NCBI RefSeq assembly: GCF_017084525.1
Contig: NZ_CP070950.1
Coordinates: 2,914,001 to 2,978,000 of the forward strand
Length of the DNA stretch: 64,000 bases
Source: Conexibacter sp. SYSU D00693
Lineage (GTDB): Bacteria > Actinomycetota > Thermoleophilia > Solirubrobacterales > Solirubrobacteraceae
Direction of reading: 5' to 3'
The position numbers and the translations under genes were made by a program. The notes under the pieces were generated by a model. It was not told the DNA's origin and did no database searches. It saw nothing but the letters and a program-made list of their open reading frames with translations. Shown here piece by piece: positions 25,400 through 62,305 of this stretch. Every line of letters starts with the position of its first letter. The stretch's first letter is position 1.

Positions 25400-25426
25400 G
25401 GTCGGACGGCGGGGACGGACCTTGAG
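25400..25426 (-). promoter_or_regulatory. Sigma-28-type promoter of the CHAP amidase gene
   Basis: CTCAA (25422-25426) - 15 nt - TCCGACC (25400-25406), one mismatch in the -10 to GCCGACC. It ends 10 nt before ATG 25389 (7 nt before GTG 25392). It lies between the fliC terminator and the gene. Confidence 0.65.
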
Positions 25427-25434
25427 CACGACGA

Positions 25435-25462
25435 CGAGGGGCGGTCCGAAGACCGCCCCTCG
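25435..25462 (-). terminator. fliC terminator
   Basis: Perfect 12-bp stem (CGAGGGGCGGTC / GACCGCCCCTCG) with a TTCG tetraloop on the minus strand, 29 nt past the flagellin stop. It is the strongest hairpin of this area. Confidence 0.8.
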
Positions 25463-25491
25463 CCTCAGGTCCAGCGTGCTGCAGGTGGTGC

Positions 25492-26292
25492 CTAGCCGCG
25501 CAGGAGCGACAGGACCGACTGCGGGGCCTGGTTGGCCTGCGCGAGCATGGCCTGGCCGGCCTGCGTGAGGATCTGGTTCTTGGTCATGGTGACCATCTCC
25601 TGAGCCATGTCCACGTCGCGGATGCGGGACTCGGCGGAGACCAGGTTCTCGTGGTAGGTGGCCGTGGCGCCCAGAGCGTGCTCGAGGCGGTTCTGCACCG
25701 CGCCGAAGGAGGCACGGGTGTTCGAGACGGCGTTGATGGCGGTGTCGACGTCGGCGAGGATCGTGGCCGAGCTCAGCGTGCTGTACGCGGTGCCGATCGT
25801 CGTCGAGAGGTTGACGGTGCCCACCGTGATGGTGTCCGAGTCGTTGGCGCCGACCTGGAAGGTCACGGTGCCAGCGGCCGACAGCAGGTTCACGCCGTTG
25901 AAGTTCGCCGACGTGGCGATGCGGTCGATCTCGGAGACGAGCTGGTTGACCTCGGACTGGATCGCCGCGGTGCCCGCGCCGGTCGTGCCGTTCTTGTACT
26001 GGACCGCCAGCTCGCGGACGCGCTGCAGCATCGAGTGGACCTCGTCGAGGTTGCCCTCGGCGGTCTGGACCAGCGAGATGCCGTCCTGCGCGTTGCGCTG
26101 CGCCTGCGCGAGGCCGTTGATCTGGCCGCGCATCTTCTCGGAGATGCCGAGGCCGGCGGCGTCGTCGCCGGCGCGGTTGATCCGGGAGCCCGTGGAGAGC
26201 TTCTCCATGGACTTCGTCAGCGCCGCCGTGCTCTTGGCGAGCGAGCGGTGGGCGCTGAAGGCCTCGATGTTGTTGTTGATGCGGAGGGACAT
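25492..26292 (-). CDS. fliC: Flagellin
   Basis: A 266-residue short flagellin. The N-terminal D0/D1 domain is RINNNIEAFSAHRSL ... GDDAAGLGISEKMRGQ and QDGISLVQTAEGNLDE. The C-terminal D0/D1 is SAESRIRDVDMAQEM ... ILTQAGQAMLAQANQAPQSVL. Between them is a Thr/Ser-rich middle of about 100 residues, so D2/D3 are almost absent. It is polymerised outside the cell after export through FlhA/FlhB, chaperoned by FliS. A good ribosome site AAGGAG precedes ATG 26292, and a sigma-28 promoter lies about 70 nt upstream. The Ser/Thr-rich middle is a possible glycosylation target. Confidence 0.96.
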   Translation of the reverse strand: MSLRINNNIEAFSAHRSLAKSTAALTKSMEKLSTGSRINRAGDDAAGLGISEKMRGQINGLAQAQRNAQDGISLVQTAEGNLDEVHSMLQRVRELAVQYKNGTTGAGTAAIQSEVNQLVSEIDRIATSANFNGVNLLSAAGTVTFQVGANDSDTITVGTVNLSTTIGTAYSTLSSATILADVDTAINAVSNTRASFGAVQNRLEHALGATATYHENLVSAESRIRDVDMAQEMVTMTKNQILTQAGQAMLAQANQAPQSVLSLLRG

Positions 26293-26358
26293 GAGCGATC
26301 TCCTTGATCTGTGGGTTGTGTCCCGGGCGACTCCCTGTCGCCCTGTTCTGACCTGGGT

Positions 26359-26385
26359 GGTCGGCGTCCCGCGCGAGGCCTTGAA
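26359..26385 (-). promoter_or_regulatory. Sigma-28-type promoter of fliC
   Basis: TTCAA (26381-26385) - 15 nt - GCCGACC (26359-26365). Leader of about 60 nt with AAGGAG, one of the few flagellar units here with a real 5' leader. Confidence 0.75.
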
Positions 26386-26418
26386 GGGCCCGCGGACGTC
26401 TGTCGTAGCCCGAAGCGG

Positions 26419-26613
26419 CTAGGCGAGGACGTCGACGTGCGGCAGGCCGTCGTCGTCCTGCCGGCGCGGCGACGGGCGGCGCTGGGGCGGGCGCTCCTGC
26501 GCGAGGTCCTCCTCGGGGTCCTGGTGGCGCCGGGTGACGGGCGCCAGGCGCTCGACGGGCCCCGCCTCGAGCGGGCCGCGGCGGCGCCGGACGGGCTCGA
26601 TGCGGTCGCTCAC
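26419..26613 (-). CDS. Small hypothetical protein, last gene of the flhA operon
   Basis: A 64-residue, highly charged protein (Arg, Glu, Asp, Pro) without a hydrophobic segment. It starts SDRIEPVRRRRGPLE and ends DDGLPHVDVLA. ATG 26613 overlaps the upstream stop in ATGA, which supports it as a real translated gene. Function not recognised; position at the end of the flhA-flhF operon suggests a flagellar accessory role. Confidence 0.5.
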   Translation of the reverse strand: MSDRIEPVRRRRGPLEAGPVERLAPVTRRHQDPEEDLAQERPPQRRPSPRRQDDDGLPHVDVLA

Positions 26614-26930
26614 GCGGACTCAGCCGCGGCGGCCGCCTCGGCGGCGGCGCGGCGCTCGGCGCGCCGGGCCAGGACGCGCCGGCGCGCGACCTCGAGCTCG
26701 GCCATGACGAGCTGGCGCCAGACGAGGACCGCGAAGCCCCAGCACACGAGGCTGCCGGCGAAGCCCGCCATGAGGGCGCGCAGCGCGGCGTCGTCGGCGC
26801 CGAGGCCGGCGCGCCTGGCGAAGAGGAAGGCGAGGGCGAAGGCGATCAGGCCGCCGAACCCGCGGGCCTTGCGGACGTGCCGGCGGGCCCTGGGGTGGTT
26901 GGCCACCGCGATGGCGACCGCGTCGCTCAC
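26610..26930 (-). CDS. Small membrane protein of the flhA-flhF operon
   Basis: A 106-residue protein with two hydrophobic segments (GGLIAFALAFLFA, and ALMAGFAGSLVCWGFAVLVW) followed by a charged helix (ELEVARRRVLARRAERR). ATG 26930 overlaps the flhF stop and its own stop overlaps the next gene, so it is translationally coupled on both sides. Not recognised; it occupies the place where flhG is often found but is not an ATPase. Confidence 0.6.
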   Translation of the reverse strand: MSDAVAIAVANHPRARRHVRKARGFGGLIAFALAFLFARRAGLGADDAALRALMAGFAGSLVCWGFAVLVWRQLVMAELEVARRRVLARRAERRAAAEAAAAAESA

Positions 26931-28447
26931 GGGACGAGCGCCTCGGCCAGGGCGGTCGCGTCAGCCGCCTCGAGGCGCTCGCCGTGCAGGACGACCGACA
27001 GCGGCACGCCGGTCTGGACCGCGAGCGCCACGGCGGTGCCCAGCTGGGCGGTCTCGTCGGCGTGGGTGATCGCGACGGCGGTGACGCCGAGGGCGCCGAC
27101 GGCGTCGAGCAGCTCGCGCGCGGCGCCGAGGCTCATGGTCGCCGGGATGGCGAGGTGGACCTCGTCGGCGCCGGCGGCGCGCAGGTCGACGGCGAGCTGG
27201 CGCAGGGCGTCGGCGTCGCGCGGGGCGGCCGCCGGGAGGTCGAGGACGGCGAGGGCGCCGGCGGCGTGGTCGCGCGCCGCGGTGCCGTCGGCCAGCGGGG
27301 CCACGGCGACGCCCGCGGCGGCGAGGCGGCGCCCGAGCTCGGCCCCGCCGTCGGGCGCGCGCAGGGCCAGCGCGGCGACGGGCAGGCCGGCCGCGGCGTG
27401 CGCGGCGGCGATGGCCGCCGCGAGCGAGGTCTTGCCGGCGCCGCCGGGCCCCGCGAGGGCGACGACGCGCGGGCCGGCGGCGAGCCGGGCGACTGGGATG
27501 CGGCGGGCCAGCGCGGCGACGGCGAGCTCGCGCAGGGGGCGGTCGGTGGCCAGCGGCGCGAGGCGCTCGGTGGCCTCGGCGAGGACGTCGACGGCGAGGC
27601 GGTGCGGGACGCCCCGGTCCTCGAGGGCCTCGGCGAGCGCCTCGACCTCCGGGTCGACGGCCGGCGCGGCGGCCGGCTGGGGCAGGGCGGCGACCGGCTC
27701 GGGGGTGACGACGGGCTCGGGGACGGCGGGCGCCTCCAGGACGGGCTCCGGCTGCGCCGCGACCGGCTCCTCGGCGACGACCTCCTCCACCGGCGGCGGC
27801 GCCCAGGCGCGCGGCTCGGGCTGGGCCTCGTCGCCGGGGGCGTCGACCGGCGCGGGCTCGAAGCCCTCCGGCTCGTGCTCCTCGACGACGAGCTGGGGCG
27901 CCTCGGCGACGGGCTCCTCGACGACCGGCTCGGGCTGGGGCTGCTCGGCGACGGGCACCTCGACGACCGGCTCGGCCTGGGGCTGCTCGGCGACGGGCAC
28001 CTCGACGACCGGCTCGGCCTGGGGCGCCTCGGCGACCGGCTCCTCGGCCACGGAGGGCTCGGCGGCGGGCGGCTCGGCCACCGGCTCGCGTCCGGCGGCG
28101 AAGAGGCCGGCGAGGCCCTCGTCCTGCGGTGCGGCGAAGAGGTCGTCCACCGTCACGTCGGTCACGCGGGCGTCGACGTGCGGGCGGTGGGCGGGCGCGG
28201 CGGGCGGCAGGACCTCCTCCTGGAGGTCGGCCTCGGCGCGCGACAGCTCGGCGGCGAAGCGCTCGAGCTCGGCGGCGGGCGCCGCGTCGAGCTCCAGGAC
28301 GCGCTTCTGGAAGAAGCCGCCGACGCCGCCGTCGAGCGCCTCGCGGCGGTCGACGATGACGGCGTCCTCGCCCAGCTCGGCCTTGATCTGCGGGACCAGC
28401 TCCTCGAGGGAGCGGCCGCGGTAGGTCTTGGTGCCACGGGTGCTCAT
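26927..28447 (-). CDS. flhF: FlhF-like SRP GTPase-family protein, divergent G motifs
   Basis: A 506-residue protein. The N-terminal KTYRGRSLEELVPQIKAELG and DAVIVDRRE match FlhF. A long acidic Pro/Glu/Val-rich linker (about 120-290) includes a 14-residue repeat. The NG domain at 300-506 has a P-loop GPGGAGKTS. The later motifs are degenerate: the place of DTAGRSP reads LDLPAAAPRD and the TKLDE motif reads THADET. GTP hydrolysis may thus be weak. FlhF guides flagellar placement and FlhA assembly. Start ATG 28447 overlaps the flhA stop by one base. Confidence 0.8.
   Translation of the reverse strand: MSTRGTKTYRGRSLEELVPQIKAELGEDAVIVDRREALDGGVGGFFQKRVLELDAAPAAELERFAAELSRAEADLQEEVLPPAAPAHRPHVDARVTDVTVDDLFAAPQDEGLAGLFAAGREPVAEPPAAEPSVAEEPVAEAPQAEPVVEVPVAEQPQAEPVVEVPVAEQPQPEPVVEEPVAEAPQLVVEEHEPEGFEPAPVDAPGDEAQPEPRAWAPPPVEEVVAEEPVAAQPEPVLEAPAVPEPVVTPEPVAALPQPAAAPAVDPEVEALAEALEDRGVPHRLAVDVLAEATERLAPLATDRPLRELAVAALARRIPVARLAAGPRVVALAGPGGAGKTSLAAAIAAAHAAAGLPVAALALRAPDGGAELGRRLAAAGVAVAPLADGTAARDHAAGALAVLDLPAAAPRDADALRQLAVDLRAAGADEVHLAIPATMSLGAARELLDAVGALGVTAVAITHADETAQLGTAVALAVQTGVPLSVVLHGERLEAADATALAEALVP
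27917..28042. repeat. 42-bp tandem repeat in flhF linker
   Basis: Three in-frame copies of a 42-bp unit starting at 27917, 27959 and 28001, encoding EPVVEVPVAEQPQA-type units of 14 residues. In-frame repeats of this kind can change linker length between strains. Confidence 0.75.
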
Positions 28448-30525: not shown

Positions 30526-30536
30526 CCACCCCTGCC

Positions 30537-30563
30537 TGTCGGCAGCTGCGCGCCGAAGTTGAG
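30537..30563 (-). promoter_or_regulatory. Sigma-28-type promoter of the flhA operon
   Basis: CTCAA (30559-30563) - 15 nt - GCCGACA (30537-30543), 11 nt before ATG 30525. Confidence 0.7.
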
Positions 30564-30667
30564 CGGTGGGCGGCGGACGGGCGGAGGTGGCACGGTCCGG
30601 TCGGCCTCCTGTACGGTCGCACCGAAGACGGGTCCGACGTCGAGGAGGGGCGTTCCGGGAGATGACG

Positions 30668-31948
30668 ATGGAAGCCGCGCACGTGCAGCTGGAGAGCTTC
30701 CCGCAGCGCCACGAGCCGCTGGCGCCGGACACGGCTGCCCGACTACGAGGACTCGCCGCCGCGTTCCTCGAGCAGTGCCGCGAGGGCGACCTCGGCGGCG
30801 TGATGTCCAACCACCTGCTCGAGCAGCAGCCCGAGCTGCGTCTGCGCGAGGACGACACGCTCTACGCGGAGACCCGCGCGAGCTGCCAGCAGAACATCGA
30901 GGAGATCCTCTCCCGCCTGCACGAGGGCATGCCGGGCTGGGGCGCCGACCCGCCGCCGATGGCGGCCGCCTGGGCGCGCTCCATGGTCCGCCGCGGCGTC
31001 GAGCTCCAGGCGGTCCTGCGGGCCTACCGCCTCGGCCACGGCCTGCTGTGGCACGAGTGGTCGGCGTGGGTGCACGACCAGTGCGAGGACACCCCGCAGC
31101 GCGCCGAGCTCCTGCACGCCAGCTCGGCGCACATGTTCGCCTACATCGACGCGGTCTGCGCGCGGCTCGTCGAGTTCTACGACCAGGAGCGCCAGCGCTG
31201 GGCGCGCAGCGCGAGCGCCGTGCGGGCGGAGGTCGTCCGCCAGCTCCTGGCCCACGAGCCGGTCAACGTCGAGGCCGCCTCGAGCGCCCTCGGCTACGAG
31301 CTGCGCCGCCGCCACGTGGCGCTCATCGTCTGGGACGACCGCGAGGTGGCCGAGTCCGACGACGTCGTGGAGGCCGCCCAGGCGTTCTGCGCGGCCGCGG
31401 GCCATCCGGACGCCCTCGTCGTCCCCGCCGGCCTGCGCGTGGTGTGGGCGTGGTGCGGCGGCGCCGAGGTCGAGGCCGAGGACTTCGACCTGCGCGACGT
31501 CGCGCGCAAGCGCGGCCTGCGCGTCGCCACCGGCGAGGTCTGGGAGGGTGCCGAGGGCTTCGCGCGCTCGCACGAGGACGCGTCGCACGCCTTCCGGGTC
31601 GCCCAGGTCCTGCGCCGGCGCCCCGGCTCGGTCACCCGCTTCCGCTCCGTCGCCCTGTCGGCGCTGCTGAGCGCCGACCCGGCTCTCGCGCGCCGCTTCG
31701 CCGACGCCGAGCTGACGGTCCTGCGCGGCGAGGACGACGCGACGCGCCGCATCCGCGCGACGCTCCAGGTCTTCCTCGAGGAGGGCGGCAGCTACGTGCG
31801 CGCCGCGCGCCGCCTCGGGGTCCACGAGAACACCGTCGCCTACCGCGTGCACCGGGCCGAGGACCTCCTCGGCCACCCGGTGGCCGAGCGGCGCCTCGAG
31901 CTCGAGGCCGCCCTGCTCGTGCACCGCACGCTCGAGACCGAGGCCTAG
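30668..31948 (+). CDS. PucR/CdaR-family transcriptional regulator
   Basis: A 426-residue regulator. An N-terminal helical sensor region (about 1-175, with ELQAVLRAYRLGHGLLWHEW) resembles the RsbRD-like domain of this family. A middle GGDEF-like region follows, and the PucR C-terminal helix-turn-helix (HTH_30) is ATLQVFLEEGGSYVRAARRLGVHENTVAYRVHRAEDL-like. GGGAG lies 6 nt before ATG 30668 (ATG 30662 also possible). It is divergent from flhA and convergent with EamA (shared CTAG). Ligand and targets are unknown; regulation of the neighbouring EamA transporter is a reasonable guess. Confidence 0.85.
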   Translation: MEAAHVQLESFPQRHEPLAPDTAARLRGLAAAFLEQCREGDLGGVMSNHLLEQQPELRLREDDTLYAETRASCQQNIEEILSRLHEGMPGWGADPPPMAAAWARSMVRRGVELQAVLRAYRLGHGLLWHEWSAWVHDQCEDTPQRAELLHASSAHMFAYIDAVCARLVEFYDQERQRWARSASAVRAEVVRQLLAHEPVNVEAASSALGYELRRRHVALIVWDDREVAESDDVVEAAQAFCAAAGHPDALVVPAGLRVVWAWCGGAEVEAEDFDLRDVARKRGLRVATGEVWEGAEGFARSHEDASHAFRVAQVLRRRPGSVTRFRSVALSALLSADPALARRFADAELTVLRGEDDATRRIRATLQVFLEEGGSYVRAARRLGVHENTVAYRVHRAEDLLGHPVAERRLELEAALLVHRTLETEA

Positions 31949-32829
31949 GCCTGCACGGGGCGCGGGCGGCGCACGCCGCCCGTCGCCACCCACGAGCCGG
32001 CGAGGATCAGCGCCAGGCCGCCGGCCGCGGCGGCCGTGAGCGCCTCGTCGAGCACGAGCACGCCGAGCAGGACCGCCACCGCCGGGTTGAGGTAGGTGAT
32101 GACCGACGCCCGCGACGGGCCGACCTCGGCGATCAGGGCGAAGAACAGGACGAAGGCCAGGGCGGTGCACAGCAGCCCGAGCGCCACGAGGCTCGCGACC
32201 GCCTCGTCGGTGACGTCGCCGCCGGGCAGGTCGAGCAGCGCGAACGGCAGGAGCATCAGGGCCGAGGCCGCGAAGCTCGCCGTCACCGGGCCCAGCGGCG
32301 GCAGGTGGCCGAGGTGGCGCTTGACGACCATCGGCCCGATCGCGTAGCCGACGGTGGCCACGAGGACCGCGAGCGCGCCGACGAGCTCGTCCGCCGACCC
32401 CGCGACGTCGACGCCGACGAGCAGCACGACGCCCGCCAGGCCGACGACGAGCCCCGCCAGCCGGCGCGGCGTCGGCCGCTCCTCGGGGTCGACCCGCAGC
32501 GCGATCAGGGCGATGACGAGCGGCAGCGCGGCGATGAGGATCGCCGCCAGCGACGAGGCGATCCGCTGCTCGCCGAACGAGATGAGCGGGAACGGCACGA
32601 CGACCTCGAACAGCGCGTAGACGACGATCGCCCTGGTGTGGGGCCGCAGCCCCCGCAGCGCCCCGGCGCGCCACGCCAGGGGCGCGAGGACCACGACGGC
32701 GATGACGACGCGGATCCAGGCGACGAACGCCGGCGGCACGCCGTCGTCGACGGCGACCTTGATGAAGAAGTACGGCAGCCCCCAGACCACCGCGACGGCG
32801 GCGAAGAGGGCGGCGCCCCGCGTGCTCAC
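31945..32829 (-). CDS. EamA/DMT-superfamily transporter
   Basis: A 294-residue membrane protein with ten helices in two EamA repeats. GAALFAAVAVVWGLPYFFIKVA opens the first; SVITYLNPAVAVLLGVLVLDE near the end is the typical second-repeat motif. Such proteins export small metabolites or amino acids. GTG 32829 is chosen because the first helix begins there; the frame extends upstream over low-complexity Arg/Pro sequence. No ribosome site is obvious. The upstream 390 bp is noncoding and includes a structured inverted repeat. It interrupts the flagellar locus. Confidence 0.8.
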   Translation of the reverse strand: MSTRGAALFAAVAVVWGLPYFFIKVAVDDGVPPAFVAWIRVVIAVVVLAPLAWRAGALRGLRPHTRAIVVYALFEVVVPFPLISFGEQRIASSLAAILIAALPLVIALIALRVDPEERPTPRRLAGLVVGLAGVVLLVGVDVAGSADELVGALAVLVATVGYAIGPMVVKRHLGHLPPLGPVTASFAASALMLLPFALLDLPGGDVTDEAVASLVALGLLCTALAFVLFFALIAEVGPSRASVITYLNPAVAVLLGVLVLDEALTAAAAGGLALILAGSWVATGGVRRPRPVQA

Positions 32830-33033
32830 GCCCGCGAGCGTCGCAGGTGGGGCGCGCTTCGGCCGTGACCCGCCGGGTGGGTCGCGTGCCACTCGGGCGG
32901 TGCCGGGGTGGGTGGCGTTCCGCTTGGGCGGTCGCGGGGTCCGGGGCGGTCGCGGTTCGGCACCGAGGAGAGGGAGGACCCGCCGCCGCGGTGCCCGCGA
33001 GGCGTCGCGACCGGGAGCCCGTGACGCACCTCG

Positions 33034-33111
33034 CCAGCCGTTGGCGGATTCTCCGGGCATTCCGGGGTGGATCCGCCACTCGATGGGATCGCGCGTCCCG
33101 GTGACGGCTGG
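33034..33111. repeat. Nested inverted repeat, possible structured RNA
   Basis: Outer arms CCAGCCGT (33034-33041) / ACGGCTGG (33104-33111), inner arms TGGCGGAT (33042-33049) / ATCCGCCA (33071-33078), and a small GGGA/TCCC stem near 33085-33099. All are perfect and abut each other, giving a three-way-junction fold. It lies about 205 nt upstream of the EamA start on the minus strand. Family not recognised; no tRNA or known riboswitch motif was matched. Confidence 0.45.
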
Positions 33112-33179
33112 TGCATGCAGGACATGCTCGAGGCGTCACGCAGCCTCGCGCGGCCAGGTTCCTCGCCCGGCGCGGGGCC

Positions 33180-33202
33180 CGAGCGGCACACCAGACCGCT
33201 CG
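33180..33202 (-). terminator. Candidate terminator after flhB
   Basis: CGAGCGG / CCGCTCG, 7-bp stem with 9-nt loop, 19 nt past the flhB stop. Moderate stability, no T-tract. Confidence 0.35.
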
Positions 33203-33221
33203 AAGGACGGCAGCAACCCCC

Positions 33222-34280: not shown

Positions 34281-34303
34281 GCTCCATCACCTCCCGCCGC
34301 GGG

Positions 34304-35334: not shown

Positions 35335-35346
35335 GGCGGCGGCCTC

Positions 35347-36542: not shown

Positions 36543-36550
36543 ACCCTGGT

Positions 36551-36577
36551 CATCGACCAGGCTGGACGGATGTTGAG
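36551..36577 (-). promoter_or_regulatory. Sigma-28-type promoter of the fliO-flhB operon
   Basis: CTCAA (36573-36577) - 15 nt - GTCGATG (36551-36557), 8 nt before GTG 36542. It directly abuts the terminator of the preceding unit. Confidence 0.6.
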
Positions 36578-36605
36578 CGCCGGGCGGACAGGCGTCCGCC
36601 CGGCG
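36578..36605 (-). terminator. Terminator of the motA-motB-fliL-fliN unit
   Basis: Perfect 12-bp stem CGCCGGGCGGAC / GTCCGCCCGGCG with a 4-nt loop, 11 nt past the fliN stop. Confidence 0.75.
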
Positions 36606-36616
36606 ACCCTGAGGGG

Positions 36617-38261: not shown

Positions 38262-38263
38262 GG

Positions 38264-39085
38264 CTAGGCGGCCTGCGCCTCACCGGCGCCGCCGTCGACG
38301 GCGCGCAGCTTCGGGTCCTCGCCGGTGACCTCACCGCGGTCGGCCGGCGGGACGTAGGACAGGAGCTTCTCCTGCACGACGCGCGGGTTGTCGCCCGCCT
38401 GGATGGCGAGGATGCCCTCGAGCAGGAGCGTGCGGTACTGGACCTCCTCGGCCGAGAGGTTCGCGAGGCGGTTGCCGACCGGGAGGAAGATGATGTTGGC
38501 GGCGCCGATGCCGTAGAGCGTCGCGATGAACGCGGTGGCGATCGACGGGCCGAGGGTCTCGGGCGCCGAGAGGTTGCCGAGCACGTGCACGAGGCCGATG
38601 ACCGTGCCCATGACGCCGATGGTCGGGGAGAAGGCGCCGGCCTTGATGAAGACGTTGGCGTTCTGCTTGTGGCGGGCGTGCATCGCCTGCGTGTCGGCCT
38701 CGAGGACCTCGGCGAGGAGCTCGGGGTCGGTGCCGTCGACGACGAGCTGCATGCCCTTGCGGGTGAAGTCGTCCTCGATGGACTCGATCTCCTCCTCGAG
38801 GGCGAGCAGGCCGTCCTTGCGGGCGCGCTCGGCGAAGCCGGTGAGCTGCTTGACGGACCCGGCCAGGTCCATGGGCTCCGGCGAGATCGCCTTCTTGTAC
38901 AGCGTGGGGATCAGCTTGGCCCGGTCCATCCCCATGGCCGCGATGGTGCAGCCGAGCGTCGTGGGGAGGATGATCACGAACGCAGCCGGGTTGATCAGCT
39001 GCGTCGGCTGGGTGCCCTTCATGATGCCGCCCACGATGAGGCTGACGAGGGCGATGCCGATCCCGATGGCAGTGGCGGCCTTCAC
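38264..39085 (-). CDS. motA: Flagellar stator protein MotA
   Basis: A 273-residue MotA with four helices: ATAIGIGIALVSLIVGGIMKG, PAAFVIILPTTLGCTIAAM, AGAFSPTIGVMGTVIGLVHVL (conserved Pro of helix 3), and AFIATLYGIGAANIIFLPV. The cytoplasmic loop contains FAERARKDGLLALEEEI with the rotor-facing Arg/Glu. GTG 39085 lies 8 nt after a sigma-28-type promoter; no ribosome site, so probably leaderless. Confidence 0.96.
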   Translation of the reverse strand: MKAATAIGIGIALVSLIVGGIMKGTQPTQLINPAAFVIILPTTLGCTIAAMGMDRAKLIPTLYKKAISPEPMDLAGSVKQLTGFAERARKDGLLALEEEIESIEDDFTRKGMQLVVDGTDPELLAEVLEADTQAMHARHKQNANVFIKAGAFSPTIGVMGTVIGLVHVLGNLSAPETLGPSIATAFIATLYGIGAANIIFLPVGNRLANLSAEEVQYRTLLLEGILAIQAGDNPRVVQEKLLSYVPPADRGEVTGEDPKLRAVDGGAGEAQAA

Positions 39086-39093: not shown

Positions 39094-39120
39094 GATCGGC
39101 CGCGGCGCCTGGGACTTCAG
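39094..39120 (-). promoter_or_regulatory. Sigma-28-type promoter of motA operon
   Basis: CTGAA (39116-39120) - 15 nt - GCCGATC (39094-39100), ending 8 nt before GTG 39085. Confidence 0.65.
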
Positions 39121-46938: not shown

Positions 46939-46965
46939 TGTCGGACGCACCGCCCGTCGCTTGAG
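46939..46965 (-). promoter_or_regulatory. Sigma-28-type promoter of cheW operon
   Basis: CTCAA (46961-46965) - 15 nt - TCCGACA (46939-46945). Leader of about 35 nt with a GGAGGG ribosome site, unlike the leaderless units. Confidence 0.65.
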
Positions 46966-48882: not shown

Positions 48883-48888
48883 GGCTAC

Positions 48889-50966: not shown

Positions 50967-51425
50967 CTACGCGGCCCGCCCGTGCATGCGCGTGGCCATC
51001 TCGTCGAGCTCGACGGCCTCGGCGCGCAGCGCCTCGAGGCGGTGCTCCTCGCCGCGGCGGGCCTTGAGGCGCTCGAGCACCTCGCGGTTGCGGCTGGCGT
51101 GCGCGAGCGACGCGCGGCTGTCGGCCAGGCGCTGGTCGAGGTCGGCCAGCAGGTGCGCCGCGTCGGCGCGATGGCGCTCGAGGCGCTCGACCCAGGTCTG
51201 GCGGGCCAGCAGGTCGGACCCGCTCAGCGACGGGGCGCCGGGGTCGGTGGCCGGGCGGGCGCCGTCGACGGCCGCACGCAGGCGGCCCTCGGCGTCGGCG
51301 AGGTGGGCGGCTCCGCGCACCCGCTCGTTGAGGCTGGCGGCGAAGGCCTCCTTGGCCCGGTCCTCGTCGTGGGCGCGCAGCTCGCGCACCCGCTCGAGGC
51401 CGAACTTGAAGGGCTTGTCCTTCAC
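50967..51425 (-). CDS. fliJ: Flagellar export chaperone/stalk protein FliJ
   Basis: A 152-residue, almost fully helical coiled-coil protein: FKFGLERVRELRAHDEDRAKEAFAASL at the start, followed by Arg/Glu/Leu heptads. It forms the central stalk of the FliI ring and contacts FlhA. GTG 51425 is supported by the family start (FKF-LERV-LR) and lies 9 nt after a sigma-28-type promoter, so it begins its own transcript though fliI is only 64 nt upstream. Confidence 0.82.
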   Translation of the reverse strand: MKDKPFKFGLERVRELRAHDEDRAKEAFAASLNERVRGAAHLADAEGRLRAAVDGARPATDPGAPSLSGSDLLARQTWVERLERHRADAAHLLADLDQRLADSRASLAHASRNREVLERLKARRGEEHRLEALRAEAVELDEMATRMHGRAA

Positions 51426-51434
51426 GGTCTTGGT

Positions 51435-51461
51435 GGTCGGTCGCGGGGAGGGCGGCTTGAC
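51435..51461 (-). promoter_or_regulatory. Sigma-28-type promoter of the fliJ operon
   Basis: GTCAA (51457-51461) - 15 nt - ACCGACC (51435-51441), ending 9 nt before GTG 51425. Weaker boxes than fliC. Confidence 0.5.
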
Positions 51462-51489
51462 GGCCTGGTGGACGCGTGTCCTAGGCGCC

Positions 51490-54556: not shown

Positions 54557-54562
54557 CGCGCG

Positions 54563-56825: not shown

Positions 56826-56827
56826 GG

Positions 56828-57187
56828 CTAGGCGACCCCGATCGCCGCGCGCAGCACGTCGTCGCGCGCCTTGATGACGGAGGCCAGCGCCTCGTACTCG
56901 AGGCCGTTGCGCGCCTGCTCGGCGGCCTCGACATCGGCGTCGACGGAGTTGCCGTCGAGGCGCATCGGGGCCAGCGGGTCGGCGCTCGGCGTGAGGTCGG
57001 CCCGCTCGAGGGCGTCCTTGCCGCCCTCGGCGAAGGCGTTGCGCAGCACGCCGTGGAAGTCCAGGTCCTGCCGGCGGTAGCCCGGCGTGGACACGTTGGC
57101 GAGGTTGCCCGCGATGGCCGACTGGCGGGCGGCCGCGCCGGCGAGGGCCCGCTCGAGGCCGAGGTGCGTGGTGTCGAAGAGCTCCAT
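56828..57187 (-). CDS. flgB: Proximal rod protein FlgB
   Basis: A 119-residue FlgB: LERALAGAAARQSAIAGNLANVSTPGYRRQDLDFH and the C-terminal NSVDADVEAAEQARNGLEYEALASVI. First gene of the seven-gene basal body operon flgB-flgC-fliE-fliF-fliG-fliH-fliI. A sigma-28-type promoter lies 75 nt upstream, leaving a leader. Confidence 0.95.
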   Translation of the reverse strand: MELFDTTHLGLERALAGAAARQSAIAGNLANVSTPGYRRQDLDFHGVLRNAFAEGGKDALERADLTPSADPLAPMRLDGNSVDADVEAAEQARNGLEYEALASVIKARDDVLRAAIGVA

Positions 57188-57262
57188 GGACGGGCGGATC
57201 GCTGGTGGCGTCCCGTCCCTGGGCTTGCCGGGTGGCCGCCGTCCGTGGTGGCCTAGTGCAGT

Positions 57263-57289
57263 GGTCGGCCGGAGCCGAACCGAGTTGAG
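57263..57289 (-). promoter_or_regulatory. Sigma-28-type promoter of the flgB-fliI operon
   Basis: CTCAA (57285-57289) - 15 nt - GCCGACC (57263-57269), a perfect copy of the consensus found here. Leader about 70 nt. Confidence 0.75.
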
Positions 57290-57293
57290 CGCG

Positions 57294-57315
57294 GCGTCCA
57301 GCGCGGGCTGGACGC
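57294..57315 (-). terminator. Terminator of the fliS-fliT unit
   Basis: Perfect 9-bp stem GCGTCCAGC / GCTGGACGC with a 4-nt loop, 17 nt past the fliT-like stop, followed at once by the flgB promoter. Confidence 0.6.
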
Positions 57316-57332
57316 GGACATCGCGCGGGGCG

Positions 57333-57641
57333 CTAGGCGACGCCGGCGGCCGCCGCGTAGGCGCCGACGCCGGCGCGGTGGCGGGCGGTGCCGCCGAGCT
57401 CGCGGCGCAGGGCGTCGCGGCGGTGCGTGAGGTGGTCGGCGGCGGCGCGCTGGAGGGCCAGCGCCTCGTGGAGGACCGGCAGCAGCTCCCGCGGCACGGG
57501 GCCGCCGGCCAGCGCGGCGAGCGCCGCGGCGCGCCGGACGGCGAGCTCCTCGAGGTGCTCCCAGCCGTCCTCGCGGGCGGCCAGGGCGACCTCCTCGCGG
57601 CCGACGGCCAGCAGCTGGCCCGCGGCCTGCTCGGGGCTCAC
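57333..57641 (-). CDS. FliT-like flagellar chaperone
   Basis: A 102-residue helical protein: SPEQAAGQLLAVGREEVALAARE, WEHLEELAVRRAAALAALAG, LLPVLHEALALQRAAADHLTHRRDALRREL. Sequence is weakly conserved, but the size, all-helix pattern and GTGA overlap with fliS (GTG 57641) fit FliT, the FliD chaperone. The call rests chiefly on position, because FliT sequences diverge rapidly. Confidence 0.6.
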   Translation of the reverse strand: MSPEQAAGQLLAVGREEVALAAREDGWEHLEELAVRRAAALAALAGGPVPRELLPVLHEALALQRAAADHLTHRRDALRRELGGTARHRAGVGAYAAAAGVA

Positions 57642-58060
57642 GCCGGGACGGGGGCCGTCGGGGTGGCCGGCGCGGGCGCCGGGGCGCCGCCCTTGGCCAG
57701 CTGGGCCCACGACTCGCGCAGCTCCGCCAGGAGCGTCACCACCGTGCCGATCTTCGACGGGTCGCGCTCGAGGCGCGCGTCGATGAGCAGGCGCTTGCAG
57801 AAGACGTAGATGCCCTCGAGGCGCTCGGCGAGCTCGCCGCCGCGCTCTTTGTCGAGCGTCATGAGCAGCTCGTCGACGATGGCGGTCGCGCGGTTGAGGC
57901 GGTCGACGGCCTGGACGGTGGCGCCCTCCTGCTCGAGCAGGACCTGGCCCTGGCGCAGGAAGCGCAGCGCGCCGTCGTACAGGTGCACGACGAGCTGCTC
58001 GGGCGAGGCGGTGAGGATCGCGCTCTCGCGGTAGGCGTCGGTCCGGCCGTAGGGGTTCAT
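57638..58060 (-). CDS. fliS: Flagellin chaperone FliS
   Basis: A 140-residue protein: YRESAILTASPEQLVVHLYDGALRFLRQG (the family signature), VDRLNRATAIVDELLMTLDKERGGELAERLEGIYVFCKRLL. Extended Ala/Pro C-terminus. It holds flagellin in the cytoplasm until export. ATG 58060 follows GGGTGAG, and a sigma-28-type promoter ends 11 nt upstream. Confidence 0.94.
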   Translation of the reverse strand: MNPYGRTDAYRESAILTASPEQLVVHLYDGALRFLRQGQVLLEQEGATVQAVDRLNRATAIVDELLMTLDKERGGELAERLEGIYVFCKRLLIDARLERDPSKIGTVVTLLAELRESWAQLAKGGAPAPAPATPTAPVPA

Positions 58061-58071
58061 CTCACCCGGGT

Positions 58072-58098
58072 GGTCGTCCGTGGCCGAAGCGTCTTGAG
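58072..58098 (-). promoter_or_regulatory. Sigma-28-type promoter of fliS-fliT
   Basis: CTCAA (58094-58098) - 15 nt - GACGACC (58072-58078), 11 nt before ATG 58060, between fliD and fliS. Confidence 0.6.
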
Positions 58099-58114
58099 CC
58101 GCTCGTCAGGTGTC

Positions 58115-59437
58115 CTACGACGACCCCATCGAGGCGATGAGGTTCGCGAGGTCCGACTGGGCGGACTGGCTCTTGAGGAGGGCGGCCTCCATGGCCGCGA
58201 ACTGCACCCGCAGCCGCTGCTCCTTGGTCTCGAGGCGCTTGTCGAACGCGTCGAGGCTGCTCTTGATCGACGAGAGCTCGGCCTGCGAGCCCTTCTGGCG
58301 CTGGGCGAGGATGCCGTCGGCCTCGACCTGCGGCGCGAGCACCTTCTCGACCGCCTGGGCGAGGCCGTCGACGCCGCCGCCGCCGAGCAGCGTGCGGACG
58401 CTGAGCGGGTCGGCCGCGAGCTTCTCGTTGAACGCCGTCTCGTCGAAGGAGAGCTTGCCCTTGAGGCTGTCGGCCGACGCGGCGCCGCCGGTGGCCTTGC
58501 CGGTCGTGATGCCCAGCGGGCCGCCGAGCTCGCCCAGGACGCCGCGCAGCTCGCTGAGCACGGCCCGCACGCCGGAGTCGCCGTAGAGGGCGCCCCGCTT
58601 GGCGTCGGTCGTCGTCGTGGCGTTGGCGACGCGCTTGTCGTCGAGCTTGAGCTGGAGCGTCTCGACGGTGCCGTTGTAGGCCTCGATGAACGCCTTGACC
58701 TTGTCCTTGACGGCCGCGGCGTCCGGGCCCGGGTTGCCGACGGTGATGTCGGCGTCCTCGGTCGTGCGGCCCTTGAGCGTCAGCTCGACGCCGGGCAGGG
58801 CGTCGGTGACGACGTTCGTGGGCGAGGTCTTCTGGACGCCGTCCAGGGTGTAGACCGCGTCGGCGCCCGGGCGGGCGGTGCCGGGGACCTCGGCCAGGCC
58901 GGCGCCCGAGGCGGTGAAGGCGCTGTCCTCGCCCGTCGTGCGCGCGGAGAGGACGAGCTTGCCGCCGACGTCGACGGCGAAGACGCCGAGCGTCGCGTCG
59001 CCGTTGATGGCGGCGACCGCGTCGCCGACCTTGGCGCCCGCGGCCAGGTTGACGGTCTTCGCGCCGATCGTGATCGACGACGCGCCGGCCTGCTCGGTGA
59101 ACGAGAAGGTGTGCTGCTCGGCGGTGGCCAGCGACACGACGCCGACCGTGTGGCCGCCGGGGCCGGCGCCGGCGGTCTGGCGGACGCCGACCTTCGCGCT
59201 CGAGCTCTCGACGGACTGCTTGTCGGCCCACAGCAGGACCGAGCGCAGGTCGCCCGCGGCGGTCTTGAGCTTGCCGAGCTGGGTCTGGACGTCCTTGAGG
59301 GCGTCCTGCTTGGCCTGCTCGGCGGTCTGGCGCAGGGTGAGGCGCGTCTTGCCCTGCGACTCGACCTGGATGAGCTGGTCGATCACCGCGCTCGTGTCCA
59401 TGCCGGACACGAGGCCGCCGAGCTGGAGGCCCGCCAT
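58115..59437 (-). CDS. fliD: Filament cap protein FliD
   Basis: A 440-residue FliD: N-terminal QLGGLVSGMDTSAVIDQLIQVESQGKTRL, central beta-rich domains with VYTLDGVQKTSPTNVVTDALPGVELTLKG (FliD family strand), and a C-terminal coiled region DAFDKRLETKEQRLRVQFAAMEAALLKSQSA. It caps the filament so flagellin can be inserted. It follows the flaG-like gene by 3 nt. Confidence 0.94.
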   Translation of the reverse strand: MAGLQLGGLVSGMDTSAVIDQLIQVESQGKTRLTLRQTAEQAKQDALKDVQTQLGKLKTAAGDLRSVLLWADKQSVESSSAKVGVRQTAGAGPGGHTVGVVSLATAEQHTFSFTEQAGASSITIGAKTVNLAAGAKVGDAVAAINGDATLGVFAVDVGGKLVLSARTTGEDSAFTASGAGLAEVPGTARPGADAVYTLDGVQKTSPTNVVTDALPGVELTLKGRTTEDADITVGNPGPDAAAVKDKVKAFIEAYNGTVETLQLKLDDKRVANATTTTDAKRGALYGDSGVRAVLSELRGVLGELGGPLGITTGKATGGAASADSLKGKLSFDETAFNEKLAADPLSVRTLLGGGGVDGLAQAVEKVLAPQVEADGILAQRQKGSQAELSSIKSSLDAFDKRLETKEQRLRVQFAAMEAALLKSQSAQSDLANLIASMGSS

Positions 59438-59440
59438 CGG

Positions 59441-59797
59441 CTAGGCCACGTCCCCCGGCACCGAGCCGTGGACGACGTCGCGGAGGTCGAGGCGGCGGAT
59501 GAGCGCCCCCTCGCTGTCCACGAGCCCGGCGACGACCTTGCCGCTCAGCTCGTGGGTGGAGAACTGGACCTGCCGGCCCTCGAAGGCCAGGCGGTCGACG
59601 AGCTCGGACGCACGCGTCATGTCCGCGACGACCTCGTCGGGGAGGTCGACCTTGCGGGCGCGGGCGGCCTCGAGGTCCAGGACGCGACCGAAGTCGCCGG
59701 ACGCGGGCGTCGCCGCAGGGCCACCGGCAGGCGCCGGCGGTCCGACGGGAGCGGGTGCTCCGACCGGCGGCAGCGCGGGGAAGTGGTGCAGCGACAT
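59441..59797 (-). CDS. FlaG-like flagellar protein
   Basis: A 118-residue protein. The Pro/Ala-rich N-terminus contains GDFGRVLDLEA (F36-L40). The C-terminal half, LAFEGRQVQFSTHELSGKVVAGLVDSEGALIRRLDLRDVV, follows the FlaG pattern (F-x-hydrophobic ... V-x-V-x-D-x-x-T-G-E-x-I-R-x-I-P). FlaG affects filament length in some bacteria and usually lies next to fliD as here. GGAGG precedes ATG 59797. Confidence 0.65.
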   Translation of the reverse strand: MSLHHFPALPPVGAPAPVGPPAPAGGPAATPASGDFGRVLDLEAARARKVDLPDEVVADMTRASELVDRLAFEGRQVQFSTHELSGKVVAGLVDSEGALIRRLDLRDVVHGSVPGDVA

Positions 59798-59850
59798 CTA
59801 GCGTTCCTCCTGGAAGCTCCTCGACCGTCCATGGCCGGGGTCGTCCAGGT

Positions 59851-59878
59851 CATCGGCGTGGTTCCTGCGCGACTTGAT
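59851..59878 (-). promoter_or_regulatory. Candidate sigma-28-type promoter of the flaG-fliD unit
   Basis: ATCAA (59874-59878) - 16 nt - GCCGATG (59851-59857). The -10 is excellent, but the spacer is one base longer than at the other sites. Leader about 45 nt with GGAGG. Confidence 0.5.
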
Positions 59879-59897
59879 CGGCACGTGGACGTCCGTC

Positions 59898-62270
59898 CTA
59901 GGCCGCCGCGGCGAGCAGGGTCCGGGCCTCGGTGCGGAACACCTCGGCGTCGTCGTGCAGGCCGCGCGCGTCGGCGATGCGCGCCAGGCCGTCCAGCGCG
60001 CGGGCGTCGGGCCCGTCCTCCTGGACCGCGGCGATCCACTCCTCGGCGGCCGAGTCGAGGAAGCCACGGCGCAGGTAGACGCCGGCGAGCAGCTCACGAC
60101 GCTCGCGCGCGGGGAGCGCGAGCGCGTCGACGGCGCGGGCCAGCGCCTCGAAGGCCTCGAAGCGCTCGAGGCGGGCCAGGGCGTCGAGCATCGTGGCGAG
60201 GACCGGGGCGGCCGCGGCGGGGACGGCGACGTCCTGGCCAGCCCAGGCGCGGAAGGCGGCGAGCTCGTCGTCGGGGAGGCCGGCGTGGGCGGCGGCGTCG
60301 AGGTCGGCGTCACCGCCGGTGGCGAGGGCGACGAAGGCGGCGGTGCGCGCGGCGGCCGCGGCGCAGCCGGCGGTCGGCGGGACGTGCGCGACCTCGGCGG
60401 CGGCCTCCTCGAGGCGGCCCTGGCTCAGCAGCGCCTCGGCCAGCACGACGCGCGCGTGGTGGACGTGCGGGCGGGCCTGCAGGACGCGGCGCAGGAGGCC
60501 CTCGGCCTCGGCGACGGCGCCGGCCTCGTAGAGCGGGACGGCGACCTGGAAGCAGTCGGCGGGGCTGAGGGCGCCGGTGACGGCCTCGACGGCGGCCGGG
60601 ACGCCGGCCGCGGGGGTGCCGGAGGCGAGCAGGAGCTCGGCCAGCGGCTCGGCGACGCCGTGGAAGCCGGGGTGCTCGCGGGCGCAGCGCTCGAGCGTGG
60701 CGCGGGCGCCGGCGTGGTCCTGCTCGGCGCGCTGGACGCGGGCGAGCTCGACGAGGGCGATGGGCCCACCGGCGCCGACGGCGCCGTGCCACTTGGTCGG
60801 CGCGTCGCCCAGCTCGAGCGCCTGCCGGAACTGGGCGGCGGCGCGCCGGGTGTCGCCGAGGGCCAGGGCCGCGCGGCCCTGCTCGAGGACGACGTCGGTG
60901 TAGCCCGGCAGCAGGCGCAGGACGTCGTCGCCGAGCTCGAGCGCCTCGGCGGCGCGGCCGCTGGCGTTGAGCGCCTTGAGCATCCGCGAGCCCAGCGACG
61001 GCGCGAAGCCGAAGGACGTGGGGTCGCGGTCGGCGCGGATGCGGCGCCAGGCGGTGAGGAAGTGCTCGGCGGCGGTGGGGGCGGAGCCCAGGACGAGGTG
61101 CTCCGAGCCGAGGTTGAAGTGCAGGAACGGGCTGTCGTCGCCCTCCGCGCGCTGGCGCTCGAGGAGCTCGAGGTTGCGGGCGGACTTGTCCTTGGCCTCG
61201 CGGACCTCGCCGAGGTAGCCGAAGTGCTCGAAGCGCACGGCGGTGCGCTCGACGCGCTCGGGCACGAAGCCGGGCAGGCGGTGGGCGATCTGCTCGTGGA
61301 TCCGGCCCTCGTAGCGGTGGCCGGGGCGGTTGCGCAACAGGCGCAGGCTGTCGGTGGTGCTCGCGCTGCCGTCGCCGAGCTCCCCGGTGTGGTTCGTCGC
61401 GCGCAGGTAGAACGCCTCGCGCCAGGTGCGGCCGGCGAGCTCGCGCAGCAGCGCGGCGTCGGCCTCGACGAGGACCTCGTCGGCGTCGAGGACCAGGAGC
61501 CAGTCGGCCGTCGCGGCGTCCATCGCGACGTTGCGGGCCTCGGCGAAGTGGCCGGTCCACGGGTGATGCAGGACGCGGGCGCCGTGCTCGAGGGCGATCT
61601 CGACGGTGCGGTCGGTCGAGCCGGTGTCCACGACGACCAGCTCGTCGACCGCGGTGCGGGCGGCGGCGAGCGTGCGGCCGAGCATCGCCTCCTCGTCGCG
61701 GACGATCATCGTCAGGGCGATGGTCAGGCCCGTCGCGGGCCGGGCGGCGTCGGCGGCCGCGCGGGCACGTGCCCCGAGGTCCCGCACGGCCTCCTGGACG
61801 TCGGCGGGCAGGGCGGCGGTGGCCAGTGGCCCGCGGGCGGCGATCGCGTCCGCCGAGACGGTGGGGAACGCCTGGGCCGTGGGGTCCAGGCGGCGGGCGG
61901 CCGCGGCCAGCGCGGTGGCGCCGGCGCGGTCGCCGAGGCCGGTGAGGGCCAGGCCGGCGAGCTCGAGCAGCACCGGCTCGGCCGGCGTCCCCTCGAGGTC
62001 GCAGACCACGGCGTCCAGGGCGGTGGCCAGGAAGCGGGCGGCCAGCTCCGGGGTCCCGCCGGTGGCCGCCAGCGCGAGCTGGGCGGTGAGGCGGCGGGCC
62101 AGGTAGCGGGACTGGGGGTCGTCGAGGCGGCCGGCGGCGTGGAGGGAGGCCGCGAAGGCCCGGACGTCTCCCGCGCGCAGCGTCGCGTGTGCGCGCACGA
62201 GGTGGGCGTCGACCGTGGCGCGCGCGCCCGCGAACGGGGACGTCGAGCCGGGTGACGCCTGGAGGGTCAT
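59898..62270 (-). CDS. Glycosyltransferase family 2 with TPR repeats, candidate flagellin-modifying enzyme
   Basis: A 790-residue cytoplasmic protein. An N-terminal helical region (1-170) precedes a GT2 catalytic domain: LTIALTMIVRDEEAMLGRTL, ELVVVDTGSTDRTVEIA, HHPWTGHFAEARNVAM and WLLVLDADEVLV (metal-binding DAD). Tetratricopeptide-like helices occupy about 390-790 (for example ALELGDDVLRLLPGYTDVVLEQGRAALALGDTRRA). This GT2-plus-TPR layout is known from protein glycosylation loci. It has a perfect sigma-28-type promoter ending 8 nt before ATG 62270, so flagellin or a hook protein is the likely acceptor (inference). Confidence 0.82.
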   Translation of the reverse strand: MTLQASPGSTSPFAGARATVDAHLVRAHATLRAGDVRAFAASLHAAGRLDDPQSRYLARRLTAQLALAATGGTPELAARFLATALDAVVCDLEGTPAEPVLLELAGLALTGLGDRAGATALAAAARRLDPTAQAFPTVSADAIAARGPLATAALPADVQEAVRDLGARARAAADAARPATGLTIALTMIVRDEEAMLGRTLAAARTAVDELVVVDTGSTDRTVEIALEHGARVLHHPWTGHFAEARNVAMDAATADWLLVLDADEVLVEADAALLRELAGRTWREAFYLRATNHTGELGDGSASTTDSLRLLRNRPGHRYEGRIHEQIAHRLPGFVPERVERTAVRFEHFGYLGEVREAKDKSARNLELLERQRAEGDDSPFLHFNLGSEHLVLGSAPTAAEHFLTAWRRIRADRDPTSFGFAPSLGSRMLKALNASGRAAEALELGDDVLRLLPGYTDVVLEQGRAALALGDTRRAAAQFRQALELGDAPTKWHGAVGAGGPIALVELARVQRAEQDHAGARATLERCAREHPGFHGVAEPLAELLLASGTPAAGVPAAVEAVTGALSPADCFQVAVPLYEAGAVAEAEGLLRRVLQARPHVHHARVVLAEALLSQGRLEEAAAEVAHVPPTAGCAAAAARTAAFVALATGGDADLDAAAHAGLPDDELAAFRAWAGQDVAVPAAAAPVLATMLDALARLERFEAFEALARAVDALALPARERRELLAGVYLRRGFLDSAAEEWIAAVQEDGPDARALDGLARIADARGLHDDAEVFRTEARTLLAAAA

Positions 62271-62278
62271 GGCCTTGA

Positions 62279-62305
62279 GGTCGGCAGGGCCGCTCGGCGG
62301 TTGAG
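62279..62305 (-). promoter_or_regulatory. Sigma-28-type promoter of the TPR-glycosyltransferase
   Basis: CTCAA (62301-62305) - 15 nt - GCCGACC (62279-62285), 8 nt before ATG 62270; leaderless geometry. Confidence 0.75.

What the first reader, a model, noticed from the sequence alone, without database searches (positions are those of the whole stretch)
25400..62305. One sigma-28 promoter motif, TCAA-N15-GCCGACC, precedes nearly every flagellar unit
Seen directly: (C/T/G)T(C/G)AA, exactly 15 nt, then (G/T/A)(C/A/T)CGA(C/T)(C/A/G), upstream of CHAP (25400-25426), fliC (26359-26385), flhA (30537-30563), fliO (36551-36577), motA (39094-39120), cheW (46939-46965), fliJ (51435-51461), flgB (57263-57289), fliS (58072-58098) and the TPR-glycosyltransferase (62279-62305), with a 16-nt-spaced variant before flaG-fliD (59851-59878). 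E. coli sigma-28 reads TAAA-N15-GCCGATAA, the same layout. Inference: FliA at 62470 directly drives early, middle and late genes alike, so there is no sign of a separate class II activator here.
Basis: partly seen in the sequence, partly recalled or inferred. Interest (0 to 1): 0.8.

Follow-up and report, generated by a model that had tools for sequence, protein, structure and literature searches.

The report
Flagellar sigma-28 promoters plus second box

Summary
All 11 sites are present as written, on the minus strand, each before a flagellar or flagellum-linked gene. A matrix from 12 own sites (these plus one outside the window) finds sites before the matching operon heads in 20 related Solirubrobacterales genomes and rarely before other cluster genes. 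Genome-wide, 12 of 14 near-perfect matches lie just before a gene start. The promoter class is ordinary sigma-28; one sigma for all flagellar genes was reported for Actinoplanes (recalled; paper not held).

"No sign of a separate activator" does not hold. CGTCCA/TGGACG lies upstream of the -35 box, at two positions about 11 bp apart, in 42 of 131 promoters (shuffles 4.9). GGAC-N4-GTCC-like boxes precede fliA and an flgM-like gene. fliA lacks the sigma-28 motif in 17 of 18 genomes. A second FliA, WhiG and the c-di-GMP anti-sigma RsiG are also encoded, so which sigma reads which promoter is open.

CsrA-type hairpins sit in fliC (13/13), flgB (13/19) and flaG (6/7) leaders; motA, fliJ and many fliS units look leaderless.

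Best model: one FliA regulon, an unidentified activator on top, CsrA-FliW after transcription.

The parts
25400..25426 (-). sigma-28-type promoter before the CHAP gene (24778-25392), start codon 4 nt after the extended -10 word
   Evidence: 6/7 relatives
26359..26385 (-). sigma-28-type promoter of fliC (25492-26292), 63-nt leader
   Evidence: 12/12 relatives
30537..30563 (-). sigma-28-type promoter of flhA; probably particular to this genome
   Evidence: relatives 2/15, flhB-flhA adjacent there
36551..36577 (-). sigma-28-type promoter in the fliO slot, before fliPQR-flhB
   Evidence: 18/19 relatives at score 15 or more
39094..39120 (-). sigma-28-type promoter of motA (38264-39085)
   Evidence: 15/19 relatives
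46939..46965 (-). sigma-28-type promoter of cheW and the che genes
   Evidence: 11/13 relatives
51435..51461 (-). sigma-28-type promoter of fliJ (50967-51425)
   Evidence: 11/20 relatives
57263..57289 (-). sigma-28-type promoter of flgB (56828-57187), 72-nt leader
   Evidence: 19/20 relatives
58072..58098 (-). sigma-28-type promoter of fliS (57638-58060)
   Evidence: 17/20 relatives
59851..59878 (-). sigma-28-type promoter of flaG-fliD, spacer one base longer
   Evidence: 6/7 relatives
62279..62305 (-). sigma-28-type promoter of the TPR-glycosyltransferase (59898-62270)
   Evidence: 13/17 relatives
19151..19180 (+). further sigma-28-type site, 5 nt before an oxidoreductase gene (start 19186)
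36586..36597 (-). GGAC-N4-GTCC box before the fliO-slot promoter (inside an 11-bp-armed palindrome)
51470..51481 (-). GGAC-N4-GTCC box before the fliJ promoter
59887..59898 (-). GGAC-N4-GTCC box before the flaG promoter
26394..26405 (-). degenerate box (CGAC-N4-GTCC) before the fliC promoter, same register
57296..57313 (-). inverted GTCCA-N8-TGGAC before the flgB promoter
62357..62370 (+). TGGAC-N4-[C]TCC, one-mismatch box upstream of fliA
62377..62422 (+). conserved blocks AATACC..GGGGAT-N20-CCGATGC before fliA, not the sigma-28 motif
62470..63291 (+). fliA (the longer ORF from 62356 is probably not the true start)
26325..26343 (-). CsrA-type hairpin in the fliC leader, ANGGA loop, 7-bp stem
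26297..26309 (-). second CsrA-type hairpin over the ribosome-binding region of fliC
59822..59837 (-). CsrA-type hairpin in the flaG leader
   Evidence: place corrected by one base

Best explanation
CTCAA[G/C]-N14-GCCGA[C/T]CACC is the FliA (sigma-28) promoter of this order of actinobacteria and starts nearly every flagellar transcription unit, early and late. On top of it a still unidentified DNA-binding protein, most likely an activator, binds GTCCA half-sites one helical turn apart just upstream of the -35 box at many of these promoters. Related GGAC-N4-GTCC boxes precede fliA and an flgM-like gene; fliA does not carry the FliA motif. So fliA is switched on by something other than itself; FliA then turns on all classes together; and CsrA-FliW acting on leadered mRNAs (fliC, flaG-fliD, in most relatives flgB) supplies part of the order that transcription does not. 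Shown by sequence: the motif, its position and conservation, the box and its position, the hairpins, the presence of the genes. Inferred: who binds what, activation rather than repression, leaderless starts, CsrA action.
For: Sites at all 11 places and before operon heads of 20 relatives, rarely before other cluster genes. 12 of 14 best genome-wide matches just upstream of gene starts. FliA orthologue in 21/21 flagellated and 0/13 non-flagellated genomes. CGTCCA/TGGACG in 42 of 131 promoter upstreams (4 of 12 own, 38 of 119 in relatives) against a shuffle mean of 4.9 (SD 2.1, maximum 12 in 500 shuffles), peaks near -23 and -12, 9 of 12 genera. GGAC-N4-GTCC 7 against 0.1 expected, GTCC-N7-GTCC 5 against 0.14, GTCC-N9/10-GGAC 7 against 0.3. 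GGACN4GTCCN9TCAA 3 times in 4.43 Mb, all at fliO, fliJ and flaG. Box with at most 1 mismatch before fliA 11/18 and the flgM-like gene 10/12 (random windows 9% and 11%), exact 3/18 and 3/12 (random 0.4% and 0.5%). fliA without the sigma-28 motif in 17/18. Hairpins fliC 13/13, flgB 13/19, flaG 6/7; flgG 0/8, cheW 1/12. CsrA in two or more copies in 19 of 21 flagellated genomes, 0-1 in 13 non-flagellated.
Against: No transcription start is mapped here. The box is missing from most fliS, cheW and CHAP promoters (present in 1/18, 2/12, 1/7), from three genera (12 sites) and from 9 of 10 further sites looked at. In the six other genomes of the genus the exact form GGACN4GTCCN9TCAA gives 4 matches in 3 genomes, only one of them (G006:C1:525795) in a flagellar region by its coordinates. 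Some boxes (fliO, flgB, flgG) lie in palindromes that could be terminators of the upstream gene. No regulator gene was seen beside the cluster. In this genome the flgB leader fails the hairpin rule and the one cheW hit is its own. The flgM-like protein is just under the Pfam cut-off (24.9 against 25). Related genomes are not independent: 39 of 131 sites come from one genus. Random windows are mostly coding.
Confidence: 0.72

Rival explanations
1. FliA alone drives the whole flagellar regulon; the GTCC-rich stretches are terminators of upstream genes or other structure and bind no activator.
For: One motif at nearly all units. Some GTCC boxes lie in long palindromes, for example fliO with 11-bp arms (sequence). 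fliS, cheW and CHAP promoters mostly lack the box.
Against: The enriched word is specific (CGTCCA) and fixed in distance to the -35 box, with density flat elsewhere; direct repeats 11 bp apart are not hairpins; the box recurs before fliA and the flgM-like gene; fliA has no sigma-28 site in 17 of 18 genomes.
Confidence: 0.13
2. WhiG, held by RsiG and c-di-GMP, rather than the clustered FliA, reads many of these promoters, or both sigmas share them.
For: WhiG-type sigma and RsiG are encoded; the promoter specificity is shared within the clade (PMC8325347, passages); sites of this type precede GGDEF-HD, PilZ and DICT genes.
Against: WhiG and RsiG are also found without flagella, while FliA follows flagella 21/21 against 0/13; the stricter TAAA-N15-GCCGATAA form finds 9 places genome-wide with 2 mismatches, one of them a flagellar site, motA.
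Confidence: 0.12
3. The motif is largely a product of base composition and codon use.
For: Loose forms are common in coding sequence.
Against: Position, conservation and the 12 of 14 genome-wide result.
Confidence: 0.02

Closest known systems
Actinoplanes missouriensis flagellar regulon (Jang et al. 2016, J Bacteriol 198:2219; not held, content recalled)
   Same: As recalled: eleven mapped starts share CTCA-N15-17-GCCGAA, and one sigma factor was proposed for all flagellar genes.
   Different: Another class of actinobacteria; here the -10 word is longer (GCCGAYCACC) and a GTCCA box lies upstream. The Actinoplanes activator TcrA binds GCA(A/C)CCG-n4-GCA(A/C)CCG (PMC12691653, passages seen), also an 11-bp repeat but another word.
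E. coli sigma-28 (FliA) promoters
   Different: In E. coli FliA serves chiefly late genes below FlhDC (recalled); here export, rod and motor genes carry the motif too.
[quoted passage not shown] abstract, Discussion and passages read)
   Same: Related class, sigma of the same family, same promoter type, c-di-GMP genes among predicted targets; RsiG and WhiG are encoded here.
   Different: There predicted to control type IV pili; here a separate FliA goes with flagella, and RsiG/WhiG are found with and without them.
CsrA-FliW control of the flagellin mRNA in Bacillus subtilis (recalled)
   Same: ANGGA hairpins in the flagellin leader, one over the ribosome-binding region; csrA, and in G006 fliW, beside the flagellar genes.
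   Different: Such hairpins also precede flgB and flaG-fliD in most relatives; binding untested.

Membership tests
sigma-28 (FliA-type) promoters | -35 and -10 words in the TAAA-N15-GCCGATAA layout | tested here: met
   the words differ in detail (TCAA, GCCGAYCA)
sigma-28 (FliA-type) promoters | place just upstream of flagellar and chemotaxis units, conserved in relatives | tested here: met
   flhA an exception (2/15)
sigma-28 (FliA-type) promoters | transcription start at the site and dependence on FliA | not testable with these tools
   needs start mapping with and without fliA
FliA/WhiG sigma family | passes the family model over its curated cut-off | tested here: met
   TIGR02479 202.9 bits against 189.6
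single-sigma flagellar regulon as recalled for Actinoplanes | one promoter motif before all flagellar units | tested here: inconclusive
   nearly all units, but fliA itself lacks it in 17 of 18 genomes and a second box is shared
FlgM anti-sigma-28 | anti-sigma helix by profile | tested here: inconclusive
   matches in 14 of 21 genomes, over cut-off in 4; own gene 24.9 against 25 bits
CsrA-regulated leader | ANGGA in a hairpin loop, conserved | tested here: met
   fliC 13/13
CsrA-regulated leader | CsrA binding and effect on translation | not testable with these tools
   needs gel shift and reporter
RsiG anti-sigma | Pfam RsiG over cut-off | tested here: met
   74.7 bits against 27
RsiG anti-sigma | E-x3-S-x2-R-x3-Q-x3-D motif | tested here: not met
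   the Q reads H in this genome (sequence)

The most novel reading that the evidence does not exclude
A flattened flagellar hierarchy: an unknown master regulator reads a TGGAC-N4-GTCCA box at fliA, at the flgM-like gene and at many structural operons (class I and II at once); FliA then fires all classes together. Because the early export and rod genes themselves need FliA, FlgM cannot act as the usual checkpoint, and order is restored after transcription by CsrA-FliW on fliC, flaG-fliD and flgB. The CCGATA word before fliA would let WhiG, and so c-di-GMP through RsiG, open the cascade.
Probability: 0.25. Interest if true: 0.72.

Novelty: new variant of a known kind. Interest (0 to 1): 0.5.

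Why it matters
How flagella are built in order when one sigma factor drives early and late genes together is open. This order of actinobacteria offers a compact, conserved case with a named promoter, a candidate activator box, a candidate FlgM and candidate CsrA sites, each testable alone. It also sets the c-di-GMP switch RsiG-WhiG beside a separate flagellar sigma, which helps to trace how that switch was re-used.

Tried and rejected
Rejected: the motif as mere composition. Rejected: RsiG-WhiG as simply the flagellar switch here, since it does not follow flagella. Looked through the predicted ORFs beside the cluster in G000, G001, G006 and G169 for a regulator and saw none (by eye, not every ORF was scanned by profile), so the box-binding protein stays unknown. 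The first idea that no FlgM exists was dropped; in genus g9 there are two FlgM-like genes, and one search used the one near the flagellar cluster. The box as part of terminators is not excluded for fliO, flgB and flgG. The paper library was searched for the recalled Actinoplanes consensus, Solirubrobacter with flagella and sigma factor (no paper), CsrA-FliW in Actinobacteria, leaderless flagellar promoters and RsiG with Thermoleophilia; their listings show no report of the box or of these leaders. Subscription papers are not held, so this does not prove absence. Rows dropped: the 131 promoters are the 12 own sites plus the best site per gene and genome (score over 11, distance over -20) for ten chosen head genes; leaders of 25 nt or less were left out; 8 of 108 genome-wide matches were not listed and not examined; one search used 12 of the 14 genomes with an FlgM match. 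The GTCC word was first seen by eye in the window's own sites and then tested mainly on relatives.
Full report
What was checked. The window lies at C1:2914001-2978000 of a 4.43-Mb genome. Its FliG is 74-79% identical to that of five Solirubrobacterales records and 56% to Conexibacter sp. DBS9H8, so it belongs to that order. The gene names hold by profile: fliC, flhA, flhB, fliR, fliQ; fliP, fliN, motA/B, che genes; flgE-type, flgD, fliK, fliJ, fliI, fliG; fliF, flgB/C, fliS, fliD, TPR-glycosyltransferase, FliA.

More than chance. In the window the tight form TCAA-N15-nCCGA is found 10 times against a simulated mean of 1.4. In the whole genome CTCAAS-N14-GCCGAYCACC has 108 matches with up to two mismatches against 31 for the reversed pattern. 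I examined 100: with at most one mismatch 12 of 14 have a gene start within 120 nt downstream, with two mismatches 12 of 86. The near-perfect motif marks gene starts; the loose one is largely noise in coding sequence.

Conservation. I took 40 kb around fliG in 20 relatives and placed orthologues by tblastn. A matrix trained only on the 12 own sites finds sites before flgB in 19 of 20, fliS 17 of 20, motA 15 of 19, fliC 12 of 12, cheW 11 of 13, the glycosyltransferase 13 of 17, fliJ 11 of 20, flgG 9 of 20, flaG 6 of 7, CHAP 6 of 7, and in the fliO slot in 18 of 19 (best over 900 nt, score 15 or more). Fourteen other cluster genes gave none; others gave a few (fliN 5 of 19, flbD 3 of 20, the rest 1-2), some of which read as coding sequence. 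Against this, 94 matches above score 14 lay outside the near-gene windows, 106 inside, where the windows are 9% of the bases; I did not sort the outside ones, which include fliO-slot sites. flhA is an exception, 2 of 15: in 15 relatives flhB and flhA are 8-154 nt apart, here about 2.7 kb, so its promoter probably came with the split.

Leaders. Sites end at most 15 nt before the estimated start codon for fliJ in 11 of 11, motA 14 of 15, CHAP 5 of 6 and fliS 10 of 17, so these mRNAs are probably leaderless; for the glycosyltransferase 2 of 13, flgG 2 of 9, flgB 1 of 19, fliC 0 of 12, cheW 0 of 11, flaG 0 of 6. The start point is taken from known sigma-28 promoters and was not measured.

A second element. 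Upstream of the -35 word CGTCCA or its complement occurs within 45 nt in 42 of 131 promoters (4 of 12 own, 38 of 119 in relatives); dinucleotide shuffles give 4.9 (SD 2.1, maximum 12 in 500). Density is high at -30 to -1 (46 occurrences) and low farther up and downstream. Half-sites peak near -23 and -12, one helical turn apart. Paired forms exceed expectation: GGAC-N4-GTCC 7 against 0.1, GTCC-N7-GTCC 5 against 0.14, GTCC-N9/10-GGAC 7 against 0.3. GGACN4GTCCN9TCAA occurs three times in the 4.43-Mb genome, all here (reversed control one). In the six other genomes of the genus it gives four matches in three genomes, one of them in a flagellar region by coordinates; so this exact form is not conserved, though the half-site is. 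Nine of twelve genera show CGTCCA; g16, g23 and g12 (12 sites) do not. fliS, cheW and CHAP mostly lack it (1/18, 2/12, 1/7), and one of ten other sites carries it.

fliA and flgM. The region before fliA has no sigma-28 site in 17 of 18 genomes. It has its own conserved blocks, TACC..GGGGAT-N20-CCGATAC; CCGATA occurs in 8 of 18 against 0.0075 expected per window. A GGAC-N4-GTCC box with at most one mismatch occurs in 11 of 18 (random windows 9%), exact in 3 (0.4%). An FlgM-like small protein was found by profile, weakly (14 of 21 at E 0.1, 4 over the cut-off, own gene just below). The sequences show what I recall as the anti-sigma helix, and in 11 genomes the gene lies 85-134 kb from fliG (my arithmetic, taking three contigs as circular). 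Its upstream region has the box with at most one mismatch in 10 of 12, exact in 3. This is the main evidence against 'no separate activator'.

Which sigma. A FliA orthologue is in 21 of 21 flagellated and 0 of 13 non-flagellated genomes checked, a WhiG-type one in all 34; the two form separate clades (100/100; bootstrap not settled, midpoint root). RsiG, the c-di-GMP-armed anti-sigma of WhiG (PMC8325347), is in 176 of 232 genomes of the order, FliG in 76 of 232. So RsiG goes with WhiG and not with flagella, yet cross-talk is open: the promoter type is shared, and such sites lie before GGDEF-HD, PilZ and DICT genes.

After transcription. Hairpins with A-N-GGA in the loop occur in 13 of 13 fliC leaders, 13 of 19 flgB and 6 of 7 flaG, against shuffle means of 0.25, 0.38 and 0.12; flgG 0 of 8, cheW 1 of 12, that one being this genome. 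In this genome fliC and flaG pass and flgB does not. In seven of thirteen fliC leaders a second hairpin covers the ribosome-binding region. CsrA is present in two or more copies in 19 of 21 flagellated genomes (one in G178 and G181), in one copy in 9 and none in 4 of 13 non-flagellated. CsrA lies beside the cluster here and, with FliW, in G006. This is the CsrA-FliW arrangement known from Bacillus (recalled), perhaps extended to the rod operon.

Known or new. The promoter class is known, and one sigma for all flagellar genes was reported for Actinoplanes (Jang 2016; not held, from recall; PMC8325347 cites it among papers on flagellar genes directed by WhiG-like sigmas). The TcrA box of Actinoplanes is also an 11-bp repeat but another word (PMC12691653, passages). 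PMC10746217 (passages) gives Thermoleophilia among classes with many flagellated species and lists FliA, FlgM, CsrA and FliW among proteins searched; the word 'promoter' does not occur in its main text. The GTCCA box at fliA, flgM and operons, and the hairpins before flgB and flaG, were in no listing that I searched. Hence 'new variant of a known kind'; the promoter motif alone would be a new member of a known kind.

Noticed in passing
window 30566-33060: flhB and flhA, neighbours in 15 relatives, are about 2.7 kb apart here with an EamA-type transporter gene between; flhA then has its own sigma-28 site.
   Followed up: partly
L015:2404-2442 (G000:C1:2979403-2979441): Two overlapping divergent sigma-28 sites, each -35 word in the other's spacer, between a fliK-like gene and flgF.
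   Followed up: partly
window 17208-22948: PseB/PseC-like sugar genes and an oxidoreductase with a sigma-28-type site, in the same window as the TPR-glycosyltransferase: a possible flagellin glycosylation set.
   Followed up: no
L068:1501, L075:1501, L084:1501, L105:848: Sigma-28-type sites before GGDEF-HD, DICT, prepilin-like and PilZ genes outside the cluster ('prepilin-like' is by eye).
   Followed up: partly
L183:8457-9425: A second FliA (58% identical) away from the cluster, on a long branch.
   Followed up: partly
L184:4645-4760 and L187: A second flagellin gene after csrA in G006 and G001 begins with GGACAAAGGATGTCC, a CsrA-like hairpin over the start codon.
   Followed up: no
L152:1523-1825: The RsiG gene of this genome lies beside a MerR-type and a probable FHA gene (by eye); the Q of the c-di-GMP motif reads H.
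   Followed up: no
window 62377-62422: Conserved ATACC..GGGGAT-N20-CCGATA blocks before fliA that fit no promoter class that I know.
   Followed up: partly
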